NCBI GenBank assembly: GCA_039193195.1
Contig: JBCCWS010000006.1
Location: forward strand, 1 to 64,000
Length of the DNA: 64,000 bases
Direction of reading: 5' to 3'
Origin: Pseudomonadota bacterium
Lineage (GTDB): Bacteria; Pseudomonadota; Gammaproteobacteria; Steroidobacterales; JBCBZW01
Positions 11,563 through 64,000 of the stretch are shown here, in pieces; within the stretch, counting starts at the first letter, position 1; each line of letters opens with the position of its first letter. The position numbers were made by a program, and so were the translations under genes. A model generated the notes under the pieces. The model saw only the letters and a list, made by a program, of their open reading frames with translations, was not told the DNA's origin and searched no databases.

Positions 11563-12882
11563 ATGCCCGAACATCTGATCGTCCGTTTGCCCGCCGACCC
11601 GGACGCCGCGCCCGAAGTGCTGCGCGTCGGTGAAGGCGGTGCCGGCCACCCCGTGGAGATGGTGTCCCCCGATGAGCTGACGAGCCCACCGGTTGAAGGG
11701 ACCCGCGTCCTCGCCCTGGTGCCGGGCGAGCACGTCTTGCACAGAGTCACCAGCGTACCGGTAAAGGGGACCGCGAAGATCCTGGCCACCGTTCCCTTCG
11801 CCCTCGAGGAGCACATTGCGGAGGATGTAGGCACCCTGCACTTCGCTATCGGTGCGCGGGAGGACACCGGTGACGTGCCGGTTGCGGCGGTCGCCGCTGA
11901 CCTCATGGAGCAGTGGACCGAAACCCTGGCGGAGCTCAACCTCTCGGCCAAAGCGATGTTCGCCGAGTCCTCCCTTCTCCATCCGCCTGCGCGCACGGCG
12001 GTGGCCTTGATCGATGGCGAGCATCTGCAGCTCGCCGCCCACGGTCACCCCCCAGTGGTGGATCAAGTGGACAACTTGGAGTTGTTGCTGGATGCGCTAG
12101 GTGCGGGCGAAGACGCGCTTACGATGCCGGCCGATGAGCAGAATGAAGACGACGACGATGACGCCGAGGAGGATGCGAGCAATGCTGCCAGGAGCGCGCC
12201 TAGCATTCTGACGGTCTTCGCCGGCAGCGAAGACCTGCAGCGCCACGCCGCTATGCTGGATGCGCTTGAGCGCCGTCTGGAGCGGGTCGAGCGACGTGAG
12301 CTCACCGCGGGCGTCGCCCCCCTGCTCGCCCAGCAAGCCGCGCAGGAAGTCGAGGCGATCAATTTACTCCAAGGCGCCTACGCGCCTGCCTCACACTACG
12401 GTGCAGTGTGGCGCGAGTGGCGCGTGGCGGCGGTGCTGGCTGGGATCCTCTTTCTTACGGTCCTTGGCGGCAAGGGTGCACAGCTTTTGCAGTTGCGTGC
12501 GGAAGACGCCCGACTCACGGCCCAGGTATCCTCGGCGGCCAACCAGCTGTGCCCTGGCGGTATAACCGGCGTTTACAGCGTGCAGGAAGAACTCGGCCGA
12601 TGCCTGGGAGACGGCGCCGGTCCCGCGGAGGACGAACTGTTCCTGACCATGCTCGACGTGCTCGGTAGCGCGCTTAGGGATACCCCCAACACGCGGATCG
12701 AGGAAGTGCGCTTCGCCCGCCAGAAGATGGACCTAAAGCTGCTTGCCCCGAGCGTCGATACGCTCGATGAGATCAAGCGTATGGTGGCTGATCGCGGGGG
12801 TATCAACCTCGAGATAGAGCAGGTGAATCCGCAGGCGGATGAAGTTGAATTCCGCATCGAATTGACTAGGCCCAATGCATGA
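11563..12882 (+). CDS. gspL: Type II secretion inner-membrane platform protein GspL
   Basis: 439 residues. An N-terminal cytoplasmic actin-like domain (to about 240) recruits the GspE ATPase in known systems, a single membrane helix follows (about residues 286-303, VAAVLAGILFLTVLGG), then a small periplasmic ferredoxin-like domain. A highly acidic linker near residues 188-206 (NEDDDDDAEEDAS) separates the halves of the cytoplasmic domain. The stop overlaps the gspM start (ATGA). The cognate gspE is not in the window. Confidence 0.92.
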   Translation: MPEHLIVRLPADPDAAPEVLRVGEGGAGHPVEMVSPDELTSPPVEGTRVLALVPGEHVLHRVTSVPVKGTAKILATVPFALEEHIAEDVGTLHFAIGAREDTGDVPVAAVAADLMEQWTETLAELNLSAKAMFAESSLLHPPARTAVALIDGEHLQLAAHGHPPVVDQVDNLELLLDALGAGEDALTMPADEQNEDDDDDAEEDASNAARSAPSILTVFAGSEDLQRHAAMLDALERRLERVERRELTAGVAPLLAQQAAQEVEAINLLQGAYAPASHYGAVWREWRVAAVLAGILFLTVLGGKGAQLLQLRAEDARLTAQVSSAANQLCPGGITGVYSVQEELGRCLGDGAGPAEDELFLTMLDVLGSALRDTPNTRIEEVRFARQKMDLKLLAPSVDTLDEIKRMVADRGGINLEIEQVNPQADEVEFRIELTRPNA

Positions 12883-56078: not shown

Positions 56079-56990
56079 TCAGGTGGCCAGCGATCGTCCA
56101 AGGAGCGACAGGGAGAGCACCGATGCGCTGTCGCTGATCGCCGTCGCCTGCCAGTCCGCAGCGGAACGATCGTAGGGGACGATAGCGAGGTCTAGGAGGT
56201 TGCAGGGAGGCAACTGCGAGTCGCGGGCAAGGATGAGCAACAAGGGCTTTCCCATCCCCTCGGCCATGCCCACCTCGTGAAGCACGTTAGCGTTGCTCGT
56301 CGTAAGATCTGCGAGAACGACACCGGACTTGCGCATGAGCAGACCGATCAGCGCCTGATAGTTTTCCCGGGCGAGGCCACCCCAGGCGCGCAGAGCGTGT
56401 AACCCGAGTTCCCTCAGCAAGGGCCGGTAGAAGTCGCTGAAGTAGGTGTCAAAGGGAGGCTGAAAGGGCATAGCGACAAAGGCCGTTCGCGAGGCCATCT
56501 CCGCTGGCGCAATAGCGGCATGTAAGAACTTAAGCCCCGCGGTGTGCAGCTCATCCGCTGACACCCACCCGTTCTCGCAGGGCACCACGGCAGCCGCGAA
56601 CGCATCTAGCGCCCCGTCGGCAACGCCGAGGTTCTTCAGGTGCGCACACGCCGTCTGCTCCGCCTTCGCTGCCGCGTCCGGATCAACGCCCCGAAGGATC
56701 ACGAAGTGGAACGCCGCGGCGGTCATCAACGCTACATCGCAGATCGCCTCCGACGCCTGCGCGACCTGGAACAGCGTCTCCTGCATCACGCGCGGCGTCG
56801 CGTCGGGGGCTGGTGGCTTCGAGGGGAGGATCGGCAGGCAACCGATCTCCTCGAGGAACGCGTTCATCCGACCCGCCAGTACCGGGTAGTGGCCCACGGC
56901 GTGGCGCGCCGGCGCGCCGGACAAGAAGTAGCCGAGCATGCCGCCGTTGTAGCGTATGTAGAGGGAATCCAAATCGTCCCGGAGCTCCAT
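56079..56990 (-). CDS. Unknown protein with 2-deoxyribosyltransferase/TIR-like C-terminal domain
   Basis: 303 residues. Residues about 168-275 read RTAFVAMPFQPPFDTYFSDF ... LADLTTSNANVLHEVGMAEG, the pattern (FVxMPF ... aDLTxxNxNVxyElGxA) of nucleoside 2-deoxyribosyltransferase-like/TIR-like domains. Such domains occur in nucleotide-sensing and anti-phage proteins. The glutamate in LHEVGMA occupies the usual active-site position. Residues 1-160 are alpha-helical with no match I know. It stands alone between spacers, with no obvious partner. Substrate or effector role is unknown. Confidence 0.6.
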   Translation of the reverse strand: MELRDDLDSLYIRYNGGMLGYFLSGAPARHAVGHYPVLAGRMNAFLEEIGCLPILPSKPPAPDATPRVMQETLFQVAQASEAICDVALMTAAAFHFVILRGVDPDAAAKAEQTACAHLKNLGVADGALDAFAAAVVPCENGWVSADELHTAGLKFLHAAIAPAEMASRTAFVAMPFQPPFDTYFSDFYRPLLRELGLHALRAWGGLARENYQALIGLLMRKSGVVLADLTTSNANVLHEVGMAEGMGKPLLLILARDSQLPPCNLLDLAIVPYDRSAADWQATAISDSASVLSLSLLGRSLAT

Positions 56991-60625: not shown

Positions 60626-63600
60626 TCAGCGCTCCCTGCTTGCTGCAGCTGCTTGAGCTCCAGTGCGCACCAACGTCTCCCCCTGACCCAAACGGGAGAA
60701 GTCGAATACGATCGGTTGCTGATCGCGCCAGTCAATCGTATCCACACGCGCACCGGGAAGAGGAGTCGGCGGATCATTCCCCTCCTCCCCAGCCATCTCG
60801 ACTCCACGACCGGCTACCCCCGTTTGCGTAGTTGGGTCACTCAGTAAACGGGGAACGCGTGTCACCGGATACTGGAGCCACTCCTGCACCACGATGCGTC
60901 CATCCACAGGGCGATAATCCGCAGCTCCCTCCTGCAGGCCCTCCTTGATGAGGGAGTAGGTGAGCAATCCGTGCTCCAGGTCATCTGCCTCAATAGCTAC
61001 CTGATCTTGCTGAGCAGCTGCCAGCACGCGCATGCCCTTATCGTAGGACAATTGCCCAAGCCCCTGACTGCCCAAAGGGCCGGGCTTGAAGCGCTCTTGC
61101 TCCACAACGCGAGCAGAGTAGCAAGCGTCTACGACCAGCAGCATCTCCCCGGCATCTACATCTCCAAGCCATAGGGTCAAGTCGGCGCTGGAGATGGCCT
61201 GCGGGCGGAGGTCAGCTAGGCTCCGGCTGGAATCGTCACCAACGTTGCTCGGTATCAAGTAGAGCTCACCGTCTTCATCAGCGTAGCCATGGCCGGAGTA
61301 GGTAATCACAACAAGGTCGTCGGGGGAGGCACGGCGCAGACCTTCGGCACCTGACACACCCCTCAGCCGATCGCGCGCACGCGCGTCCCCGGACAAGGCC
61401 CGCAAGGCGTCTCGCACCTTTTCCTTTGTCGCATCAGCTGCTCCGTTCACTTTTGAAACAAGGGAGACGCTTACTGCCTCGTCGAACGCTCCACTCTTGC
61501 GAGCTGCCTCTCTCAGGCCCCTCAGCGCCAAATCCGCATCGTTGGCGGCGTGCTTCAAGCGCAGCCCCGAGTGTTCGCTATCCGACACTCCGATCGAAAT
61601 CACGAATAGTCGCCTAATGCCTGACGAGCGTGCCTTCGGTAGAGCAAGCCTAGCCTTCGCAGACACGCTCTTAACGTTGTCTGAATTCAGCGCGTACGCG
61701 CTGAATTCGACAGACGCCCCCTCCACCGACGCGGTTGGAAGCTCCACCTGAAACTCCTGCGTATAATTTCCCTTGGCATCAAAGTCAAGGTTGCCCAGGC
61801 CTGCGGGTGCGTATGCGACAAGTCGATGATCACGAAACAGGCGCAGTGCAGCACCACCTGATCGATACTCCCTCCCTCCCACGACTGTACTCGCCTCACG
61901 TACGCTAACCTTGATTCTCGCCTTGCCTTGCCCGATCACGACTGCCTCGTCGATAGTGACCACTGGCAAGGCGCGATTGCGATTGTGCAATGGCGGCACT
62001 GCCACTAAAGACTCGCCAGCGACCAACTTCGGGAGAAGCTGAGGTTCATAGTACTCCCGCATATACAGCTCTAGCGGCCGTGAGCGGAGCGGCTCGTCGC
62101 TGAGTACCCAATGAACTTCCTCGATATCTTCCAGCCACCTAGAATCAAAGTGTCCTTCGGGTGTCACCGCCAGCCAATCCTCATCGTTTGGCACGACCAC
62201 GCTACCGAGCTCCATATCCGCGTCCACATCGAACACTCTTATGCGGTTCTCTGCACCGCCGAGTGCCAGCAGACGACCAGTCGCGCTGTAGGAGAGATTT
62301 CCCCAGAAATCCGTGTACTGGGTTGAGCGACGCACCGAATCCGAATCTAAGTCCCAATGCTGAAGAGATCGACTAGTCGTGATCGTGAGCACGTTGCTGG
62401 TTGGTCTAAAGATGAAATCGCTAAGTGACGCATCTCCCACTGGCAACTCCCAGCGCATCCGACCAGAAGCCAACTCCCATACTTTGATACTCTGTTCTTC
62501 TACAATCGCTAGTGAACCACTGTCCCCGCTGAACACCAGCTTATTGCTAGCGTAGCCAAGTTCTCCGCCCTTAACACTCTTGGAGAAGAGCTCGCGCCAG
62601 CTACTAGTGTCGAGCACGACAACACGGCTCTCTGCGCCACGCCGAAACGGGTTGAAGCCCCCCGGGCTCTCCCGCATACCGAGGCGACGCCCGTCGGGGC
62701 TGAACGCAGCAGAGAATACGTCTTTGCGCTCCAGTAGGACTGCCCCGGTGAGCGGATCAACGACACGGAATTGGTTCTGCTCCTGCTCGTTGGTGAACAG
62801 CGCAAGCAGCCCCCCACTGCGACTGAACTGGCCGGCAGCATAGGCCGCCTCCGGCTTTGACCTCGAAGCGCTCTCGAGAGGAAACTCCTGGGTAACGCGA
62901 CCTGAATCGAGCTCGCTTACCACTACCTTGGAAGACCCGCCCTTGCTCTGCACCTCCGCCAACAAACGTGCGTCGGAACTCACTGGCGAATAATTGAAGA
63001 ACGAGCTTACCTGCGACACCCGACGCGGAGGCAAGCCGCTACGCAAATCCCATACTGCGGTGCCCCCAGTTAGCGTTGCGGTGATCAGCGTACTATCGTC
63101 GTCACCGAACACCGGCACCGACCCCATCGGCAGCGGCACGGGGAATCCAAACGAGAGATCCCGTTTGGAGACAGCGAGGGAAGAAACACGTTCTCCCTCG
63201 CGGGCGTGCCAACGGGAAACCGTTTTGAAGTCCTCGACCATGTCTAGGGTAGAGCCATCACGGCTAAACTTCACGGGGGCATTTAGCATCGCGTACTGTG
63301 ACGCTTCGCGGAGAGCGGCCAACACGCCGCCTTTTCCTTCCTCTCCCACCGCATCGACAGGACTATTGTCCTCCTCAATAATCCCGCCGACTTCATACAG
63401 TGGAGTTCCGCCCTCAAGAAGCGATAGTACCGAGACCTTGCCATCTCCACGACCATACGCTAGCAACTCTCCGTCCGGCGAGAGTGCGATACTGCGAATT
63501 CCCCCCAGCAGTAGGGCACCGAAGCCGCCGTCCAAGACCTGCTTCGCTCGCTGCCCGAGATCGCATACCCCCGCCACCTGGTTGCGCCCCTCAATCGCCG

Positions 63601-64000
63601 CGGTGACCTTACTGTTTGCGGTGAGGTCCCCAAGCGTGTCCAGCACCCCCGTTGCCTCGAAGGGTTTGTCGCACACATTGCTCACTGGCGGCTTCCCGAG
63701 CATCCTGCCGTCCAAACCGTAGAGCTGCACCGAACCGTTGTTGCTCCCCAAGGCGAGCGTCTGCCCATCTGGGCTGAATTGCAGTTCTGTCACCCGACCA
63801 ACCTTCGCCGTAAAGGTTCGGGGTGACTTGGCACCAACGGGCTCGAACAGCTCGACTTTACGCTCCCCTACGGCCGCTGCCACCAGCGTTCCATCAGGGC
63901 TCATTGCTACTGCCGCCACCGCTGCCCCTTCCTCCGCGGGGCGCACTAGAGTGCCCGTAGCGACCTCCCAAACCGAAACCCCCCGCTTTCCGCCGTGTAC
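60626..64000 (-). CDS. WD40 beta-propeller/caspase-like peptidase, 5' end beyond window
   Basis: At least 1124 residues; the frame is open to the right edge of the window (HGGKRGVSVWEVATGTLVRPAEEG is continuous), so the start lies outside. The upstream part is many WD40 repeats (MSPDGTLVAAAVGE, FSPDGQTLALGSNNGSVQLYG, ALSPDGELLAYGRGDGKVSVL). The C-terminal part is a C14 caspase-like domain (RRLFVISIGVSDSEHSGLRL) with the catalytic His in TYSGHGYA (codon 61289-61291) and Cys in VVDACYSA (61121-61123). GC content is visibly below the neighbours, hinting at transfer. In such proteins the propeller is thought to sense and the peptidase to execute; the trigger and target are unknown. Confidence 0.85.
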   Translation of the reverse strand, partial: VHGGKRGVSVWEVATGTLVRPAEEGAAVAAVAMSPDGTLVAAAVGERKVELFEPVGAKSPRTFTAKVGRVTELQFSPDGQTLALGSNNGSVQLYGLDGRMLGKPPVSNVCDKPFEATGVLDTLGDLTANSKVTAAIEGRNQVAGVCDLGQRAKQVLDGGFGALLLGGIRSIALSPDGELLAYGRGDGKVSVLSLLEGGTPLYEVGGIIEEDNSPVDAVGEEGKGGVLAALREASQYAMLNAPVKFSRDGSTLDMVEDFKTVSRWHAREGERVSSLAVSKRDLSFGFPVPLPMGSVPVFGDDDSTLITATLTGGTAVWDLRSGLPPRRVSQVSSFFNYSPVSSDARLLAEVQSKGGSSKVVVSELDSGRVTQEFPLESASRSKPEAAYAAGQFSRSGGLLALFTNEQEQNQFRVVDPLTGAVLLERKDVFSAAFSPDGRRLGMRESPGGFNPFRRGAESRVVVLDTSSWRELFSKSVKGGELGYASNKLVFSGDSGSLAIVEEQSIKVWELASGRMRWELPVGDASLSDFIFRPTSNVLTITTSRSLQHWDLDSDSVRRSTQYTDFWGNLSYSATGRLLALGGAENRIRVFDVDADMELGSVVVPNDEDWLAVTPEGHFDSRWLEDIEEVHWVLSDEPLRSRPLELYMREYYEPQLLPKLVAGESLVAVPPLHNRNRALPVVTIDEAVVIGQGKARIKVSVREASTVVGGREYRSGGAALRLFRDHRLVAYAPAGLGNLDFDAKGNYTQEFQVELPTASVEGASVEFSAYALNSDNVKSVSAKARLALPKARSSGIRRLFVISIGVSDSEHSGLRLKHAANDADLALRGLREAARKSGAFDEAVSVSLVSKVNGAADATKEKVRDALRALSGDARARDRLRGVSGAEGLRRASPDDLVVITYSGHGYADEDGELYLIPSNVGDDSSRSLADLRPQAISSADLTLWLGDVDAGEMLLVVDACYSARVVEQERFKPGPLGSQGLGQLSYDKGMRVLAAAQQDQVAIEADDLEHGLLTYSLIKEGLQEGAADYRPVDGRIVVQEWLQYPVTRVPRLLSDPTTQTGVAGRGVEMAGEEGNDPPTPLPGARVDTIDWRDQQPIVFDFSRLGQGETLVRTGAQAAAASRER

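What the first reader, a model, noticed from the sequence alone, without database searches (positions are those of the whole stretch)
60626..64000. Low-GC WD40-caspase gene at the window edge
A long propeller joined to a caspase-like peptidase with intact His and Cys, in a gene whose composition differs from its neighbours, looks like transferred accessory material. Such proteins are candidates for regulated cell death or defence, and the upstream partners lie outside the window.
Basis: partly seen in the sequence, partly recalled or inferred. Interest (0 to 1): 0.58.

Follow-up and report, generated by a model that had tools for sequence, protein, structure and literature searches.

The report
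Exported caspase paired with membrane TIR
The gene at the window edge makes a caspase-like protease that appears to be sent out of the cytoplasm, and its neighbour just outside the window makes a membrane-spanning TIR protein, so together they look like a possible death or defence switch working across the cell membrane.

Summary
Window 60626-64000 (-) is the 3' part of a 1,437-codon WD40-caspase gene (contig C6:60626-64939) with His1217 and Cys1273 intact; its GC (0.594) is below all 76 background ORFs compared.
The protein starts with a signal-peptide-like segment, so propeller and caspase are probably periplasmic. The gene directly upstream (C6:65040-66083, GC 0.596) encodes TIR, one transmembrane helix and a DUF4384-like domain, predicted TIR-inside.
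A diverged paralogous pair (48% / 34% identity) lies on contig C55. A third locus (C5) has a TIR-TM gene upstream of an exported, degenerate caspase. In relatives the same caspase family is mostly exported, and 5 of 12 readable loci carry a further caspase-family gene instead.
The full TIR-TM-DUF4384 architecture was found in 0 of 368 other genomes of the class, and the caspase family in 0 of 245 of the order. The single sister genome lacks the pair, and synteny breaks beside it.
Best reading: a horizontally acquired operon in which a periplasmic propeller-caspase controls a cytosolic TIR NADase. The domains are solid; the cross-membrane mechanism is inferred.

The parts
60626..64000 (-). WD40-caspase gene, in-window part; the gene continues beyond the window to contig position C6:64939 (same numbering), 1,437 aa in all. 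Outside the window it holds the rest of the WD40 region, an N-terminal domain (res 27-190, C6:64370-64861) and a signal-peptide-like start (res 1-26, C6:64862-64939). The upstream TIR-TM-DUF4384-like gene, C6:65040-66083 (-), is also outside the window and so has no row here
62060..64000 (-). WD40 propeller region, in-window part (res about 314-960 of a region res about 197-960)
61643..61963 (-). beta-sandwich linker domain (res about 993-1099) between propeller and caspase
   Evidence: model secondary structure
60830..61612 (-). caspase-like domain (res about 1110-1370)
61289..61291 (-). codon of the catalytic His1217 (SGHG)
61121..61123 (-). codon of the catalytic Cys1273 (DACYS)

Best explanation
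A horizontally acquired two-gene operon forms a death or defence switch that spans the inner membrane. The second gene makes an exported protein whose N-terminal domain and WD40 propellers sense something in the periplasm (phage adsorption, envelope damage or a foreign protein) and carry a caspase-like protease. The first gene makes an inner-membrane protein with a TIR NADase domain in the cytoplasm and a DUF4384-like domain in the periplasm. On activation the caspase binds or cuts the periplasmic DUF4384-like domain, the TIR domains cluster, NAD+ is consumed and the cell dies or stops growing. Shown here: domains, catalytic residues, gene order, a second diverged copy of the pair, sporadic distribution. 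Inferred: export, topology, physical contact, protease-to-TIR direction, NADase activity, the stimulus, and death as the outcome.
For: Upstream TIR_2 at 1.4e-19 with one hydrophobic helix. Charges flanking the helix (RARR before, acidic after; RRARRR before in the C55 copy) predict TIR inside, read by eye. Diverged paralogous pair on C55, same order and strand, 34-base gap; its DUF4384 is above Pfam's cut-off (28.5 of 27 bits) and aligns with the window copy at E 6e-10. 9 of 11 WD40-caspases have a signal-like segment by the threshold used. Relatives carry a further caspase-family gene in 5 of 12 loci with readable flanks, one of them with a clear DUF4384 (5.3e-7), so DUF4384 is probably on the caspase's side of the membrane. 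A third locus on C5 has a TIR-TM gene upstream of an exported caspase-family gene. TIR genes lie upstream, same strand, within 3 kb of 3 of 6 caspase genes; Poisson expectation 0.05, P 2e-5 (post hoc, two of the three are paralogues). Both pair genes share the atypical GC.
Against: The window copy alone is below Pfam's DUF4384 cut-off (15.2 and 16.8 of 27 bits). The C55 TM helix is under my threshold (1.32). The C5 caspase has lost both catalytic motifs (read by eye), so proteolysis is not needed in every such pair. The fusion was found in no other genome of 368, so the TIR link rests on one genome. 5 of 12 loci have neither a second caspase nor a TIR gene next door by Pfam. This genome has 38 TIR_2 matches, so TIR neighbours are commoner here than usual. 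No experiment links any member to defence.
Confidence: 0.45

Rival explanations
1. Periplasmic protease module with a non-signalling tether: the exported WD40-caspase is itself the effector and cuts periplasmic or incoming proteins; the TIR-TM protein is a separate co-transferred gene or a localisation anchor, and TIR does not respond to the caspase.
For: Relatives carry only exported caspase partners or none; the Acidobacteria and Bradyrhizobium copies stand alone. Some plasmid copies lie near lysozyme or amidase genes.
Against: The TIR-TM-DUF4384 partner is kept beside the caspase in two copies that have diverged to 48% and 34% identity, each with the W+4 Glu.
Confidence: 0.25
2. Scaffold model: propeller and caspase fold act as a non-proteolytic receptor; ligand binding is passed to DUF4384 and TIR by contact alone, the protease being dispensable.
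For: The C5 pair couples a TIR-TM protein to a caspase-family protein that lacks both catalytic motifs (by eye; Pfam matches only positions 1-63 of 233).
Against: His and Cys are invariant in 12 of 12 aligned WD40-caspases.
Confidence: 0.2
3. Chance neighbours in an accessory region of a genome rich in TIR and conflict genes.
For: 38 TIR_2 matches in this genome; the C55 copy sits beside a SEFIR/TIR protein and an AAA ATPase of MoxR look.
Against: Same order, strand and short gap in both copies (100 and 34 bases); shared unusual GC in the window pair; the only two TIR-DUF4384 fusions found are exactly these two neighbours.
Confidence: 0.1

Closest known systems
EACC1-caspase two-gene membrane system (System 4, Kaur et al. 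2020, PMC7159879; section 33 read in full)
   Same: 5' gene with a single TM helix and domains on both sides of the membrane, 3' gene with a caspase-type protease; membrane sensor-to-effector logic; NCBIfam's nearest caspase model is the EACC1-associated one.
   Different: There the caspase is frequently N-terminal with variable C-terminal effectors and the small EACC1 is the constant part. Here the caspase is C-terminal behind an exported propeller and the 5' gene carries a TIR effector and a DUF4384-like domain; no EACC1 match at E 1 or below.
WD40-containing prokaryotic metacaspases / orthocaspases (Asplund-Samuelsson et al. 2012, PMC3501461; passages read)
   Same: WD40 is the commonest partner domain of prokaryotic metacaspases there (10.9%); that paper notes that single N-terminal helices may be signal peptides.
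   Different: No TIR-TM partner is described in the passages I saw; here export and a membrane partner define the unit.
Exported caspase-DUF4384 proteins (this genome C36, Desulfuromonas L058)
   Same: Same DUF4384 domain, apparently on the outer side of the membrane, next to the same WD40-caspase family in L058.
   Different: In the window and C55 pairs the partner has TIR plus a TM helix in place of the caspase part.
Thoeris ThsB and other TIR NADase defence proteins
   Same: TIR domain with the conserved Glu four residues after W.
   Different: No ThsA-type partner seen; ThsB_TIR scores under its cut-off (17.6 of 21.2 bits).

Membership tests
Prokaryotic caspase homologue (C14 / metacaspase type) | caspase (p20-type) fold | tested here: met
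   Foldseek MALT1 prob 1.00, E 9.7e-5; VIA Z about 12 to legumain and metacaspase. Model mean pLDDT only 58.8.
Prokaryotic caspase homologue (C14 / metacaspase type) | His-Cys dyad | tested here: met
   invariant in 12 of 12 sequences; codons checked
Prokaryotic caspase homologue (C14 / metacaspase type) | curated model score above its cut-off | tested here: not met
   PF00656 20.5 of 21.4 bits; NCBIfam caspase_w_EACC1 53.7 of 140 bits. I therefore call it caspase-like, by fold and dyad.
Prokaryotic caspase homologue (C14 / metacaspase type) | proteolytic activity | not testable with these tools
   -
TIR NADase | TIR domain above cut-off | tested here: met
   PF13676 71.3 of 28 bits; PDB matches of the two-row profile include the NAD+ hydrolase AbTIR 8g83, E 3.1e-6
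TIR NADase | catalytic Glu (position recalled, not from a call) | tested here: met
   W66-E70 in the window copy, same spacing in C55
TIR NADase | NAD+ cleavage | not testable with these tools
   -
DUF4384 domain (PF14326) | score above Pfam's cut-off | tested here: inconclusive
   C55 partner 28.5 of 27 bits met; window partner 15.2 and 16.8 of 27 not met; the two align at E 6e-10
EACC1-caspase system | 5' gene encodes EACC1 (single TM helix with short extensions) | tested here: inconclusive
   no EACC1 match at E 1 or below in Pfam or NCBIfam, but I did not check that either library holds an EACC1 model
EACC1-caspase system | caspase at the N-terminus of the 3' gene product (frequent) | tested here: not met
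   caspase match at res 1203-1342 of 1437
Thoeris | ThsB-type TIR above cut-off, with a ThsA gene | tested here: not met
   ThsB_TIR 17.6 of 21.2 bits; no ThsA seen among the ORFs of L005 that I read

The most novel reading that the evidence does not exclude
Bacteria have a caspase-to-TIR relay that crosses the inner membrane: an exported propeller-caspase reads an extracytoplasmic signal and switches on a cytosolic TIR NADase through a membrane-spanning DUF4384 partner. The DUF4384 partner is an exchangeable socket: a caspase effector outside in some lineages, a TIR effector inside in this one.
Probability: 0.35. Interest if true: 0.8.

Novelty: new variant of a known kind. Interest (0 to 1): 0.52.

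Why it matters
Known TIR defence systems, as I recall them, sense threats inside the cell. A TIR protein wired to an exported caspase would let a cell respond before or during entry, and would give a simple two-gene case in which the old question of what exported bacterial caspases do can be tested directly. DUF4384 appears in only 5 papers of the library searched, so a role for it as the coupling domain would be new.

Tried and rejected
Searches that found nothing: genome-contig scan with the two-row alignment A3 (204 pattern matches, none confirmed); viral contigs with A5 and A2; phage records. The genome-contig scan with A4 gave 5 loci; one (L061, archaeal MAG, 22% identity) was left out as too weak. 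The order of G133 holds only that genome. G089 and G093 matches are other, more distant caspases and were dropped. The phylum sample gave 8 other genomes with weaker matches (7.7e-22 to 3.9e-28 and similar) whose neighbours I did not examine. Of the 10 plasmid records, 6 were opened; H3, H7, H9 and H10 were not.

Extending DUF4384 to the Marinobacterium, Sulfitobacter and R. leguminosarum partners: the ends look alike by eye, but my profile scored Marinobacterium at E 0.086 and the others at or below the level of shuffled controls, and Pfam found no DUF4384 in them. So I claim DUF4384 only for C55, C36 and Desulfuromonas, and by homology for the window copy. The N-terminal domain resembles TolB-N/CsgG-type domains by eye; no match in Pfam at E 10 or PDB at E 1, so this is not claimed. 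A lipoprotein signal was considered and not favoured (no good lipobox by eye). A tree of 12 sequences supports only the sister relation of the two copies of this genome (99/100) and one rhizobial pair; deeper forks are weak, so the direction of the partner swap is not shown.

Structure prediction takes only window sequence and loci of certain tools, so the N-terminal domain (res 1-313) and the TIR protein were not modelled and not submitted.

Correction to my notebook: says 10 of 11 WD40-caspases have a signal-like segment; the script's threshold gives 9 of 11 (Bradyrhizobium has one by eye only, R. leguminosarum Tp73_4 none as annotated).

Full report
What is there. The window is the first 64,000 bases of contig C6 (220,078 bases) of a 6.71-Mb genome in 113 contigs. 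The class is Gammaproteobacteria, inferred from G133, a same-class genome whose 4,539-base contig matches a named MAG contig of that length. The reported open frame is the 3' part of a gene of 1,437 codons, C6:60626-64939 (-). The protein reads: signal-like segment (res 6-24), a domain of about 165 residues with no Pfam or PDB match, WD40 repeats (about 197-960), a predicted beta-sandwich linker, and a caspase-like domain. His1217 and Cys1273 are intact and invariant in 12 of 12 aligned relatives. The predicted C-terminal part (mean pLDDT 58.8, better in the core) matches MALT1, legumain, metacaspases and caspase-7. The curated caspase models score just below (Pfam) or well below (NCBIfam) their cut-offs.

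The missing partner. The next gene upstream on the same strand, C6:65040-66083, ends 100 bases before the caspase start. It encodes TIR (PF13676 1.4e-19), a strong hydrophobic helix (res 147-165, mean 2.57) and a DUF4384-like domain. The basic residues before the helix and acidic ones after it predict TIR inside and DUF4384 outside (by eye). W66 and E70 keep the spacing of TIR NADases (catalytic position recalled). Beyond it lie a siderophore-interacting protein, a 3,314-aa PKS-like ORF (by eye), an ABC transporter and further large ORFs.

A second copy and a third relative in the same genome. On C55 a WD40-caspase of 1,425 aa (48% identical) follows a TIR-TM-DUF4384 gene (34% identical) with a 34-base gap. 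That DUF4384 passes Pfam's cut-off, and the two DUF4384-like domains align at E 6e-10. Its TM helix is below my threshold (1.32) but follows RRARRR. On C5 (L009) a TIR-TM gene (11863-12723 -) lies upstream of a small exported-looking protein and an exported-looking caspase-family protein whose catalytic motifs are lost by eye. PF00656 and the two pairs give 6 caspase-family genes in this genome; 3 have a TIR gene upstream on the same strand within 3 kb (Poisson expectation 0.05, P 2e-5). That test was made after seeing the data, two of the three are paralogues, and conflict genes cluster, so it is indicative only. Of 38 TIR_2 matches, 10 have a helix of at least 1.6 after the TIR domain, among them the window's and the C5 one. 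Of the other 8 I looked at the downstream side of 7, some of them near contig ends: none has a recognisable caspase there (by eye).

Relatives. One genome-contig scan, a class search and a plasmid search gave, with this genome's own two, twelve loci with readable flanks: window, C55, G091, Desulfuromonas, Marinobacterium, Acidobacteria, and six plasmid regions. By Pfam, 5 of 12 have a further caspase-family or WD40-caspase gene next door or within two genes (Desulfuromonas, Marinobacterium, Sulfitobacter, R. leguminosarum Tp73_4 and WSM1325), 2 of 12 have the TIR-TM partner, and 5 of 12 have neither (of these G091 has broken caspase-like and DUF4384-like pieces by eye). Of 11 full-length WD40-caspases, 9 have a signal-like segment; of 8 non-TIR partners, 7 do. 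Desulfuromonas and Marinobacterium loci also have CHASE2 membrane proteins. One plasmid copy (Rhizobium CC1099) lies near patatin, DncV-like and ThiF genes of CBASS type.

Distribution and transfer. In 368 other genomes of the class the TIR-TM-DUF4384 profile has matches at 1e-25 in 9, and none of them reaches the DUF4384 part (they end at or before position 190 of 374); only this genome's two copies span the full length. The caspase profile finds 0 of 245 other genomes of the order at 1e-30 and, with the earlier two-row profile, 2 strong relatives in 368 of the class (G133 and the broken G091). The only same-genus genome has the neighbouring oxidoreductase (86% identity) and an AraC gene, but a GNAT gene and, by eye, pheT/pheS/infC/thrS genes where the pair lies here. 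Both pair genes have lower GC than all 76 background ORFs; the C55 pair is normal (0.639, 0.632), so low GC is not a property of the family.

How it most likely works. The DUF4384 domain keeps company with exported caspases elsewhere, and here it is fused through a helix to a cytosolic TIR. The simplest account is a periplasmic sensor-protease that acts on the periplasmic end of a TIR receptor, leading to NAD+ loss. The degenerate C5 caspase favours contact over cutting in at least that pair; the intact dyads in the WD40 family favour cutting.

What is known. The nearest published design is the EACC1-caspase two-gene membrane system (PMC7159879, section 33 read in full; other passages). WD40-metacaspases and their possible signal peptides are described in PMC3501461 (passages). 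An extracellular WD40 with a cytosolic protease is proposed for cyanobacteria in PMC7475262 (passages). PMC6426788 and PMC8195603 were seen as passages. Searches listed no paper whose title or abstract start describes a TIR-DUF4384 protein or its pairing with an exported caspase; these are listings only, and the library lacks most subscription journals.

Noticed in passing
whole genome G000: 38 TIR_2 matches at E 1e-3. In a 274-genome class sample it has the most first-look candidates of the rows I saw (44; next 35 and 21; scoring there was capped at 15).
   Followed up: partly
L007:8037-17384 (G000 C36:44037-53384): Row of zf-HC2 protein, caspase-DUF4384, ShlB-type outer-membrane transporter and a protein with a two-partner-secretion domain and a CHAT protease domain: looks like an exported protease system.
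   Followed up: no
L009:8869-12723 (G000 C5): TIR-TM gene, exported-looking carboxypeptidase-regulatory-like protein and exported-looking caspase-family protein lacking both catalytic motifs by eye.
   Followed up: partly
L013:1-6102 (G000 C55:15001-21102): SEFIR/TIR protein, AAA ATPase of MoxR look and an FGE-sulfatase-like protein (last by eye) downstream of the C55 pair: resembles MoxR-centred conflict systems.
   Followed up: no
window 56079-56990 (-): 303-aa gene with a weak nucleoside deoxyribosyltransferase-like match between the AraC and oxidoreductase genes, which are adjacent in the same-genus genome.
   Followed up: no
L046:4868-11685 (G091): Broken WD40-caspase and caspase/DUF4384-like pieces next to each other: a decaying copy in a single-contig genome.
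   Followed up: no
L103:427-11750 (Rhizobium CC1099 plasmid): CBASS-like genes (patatin, DncV-like, ThiF) near a WD40-caspase that is followed by an exported-looking unknown also found beside the S. fredii copy.
   Followed up: no
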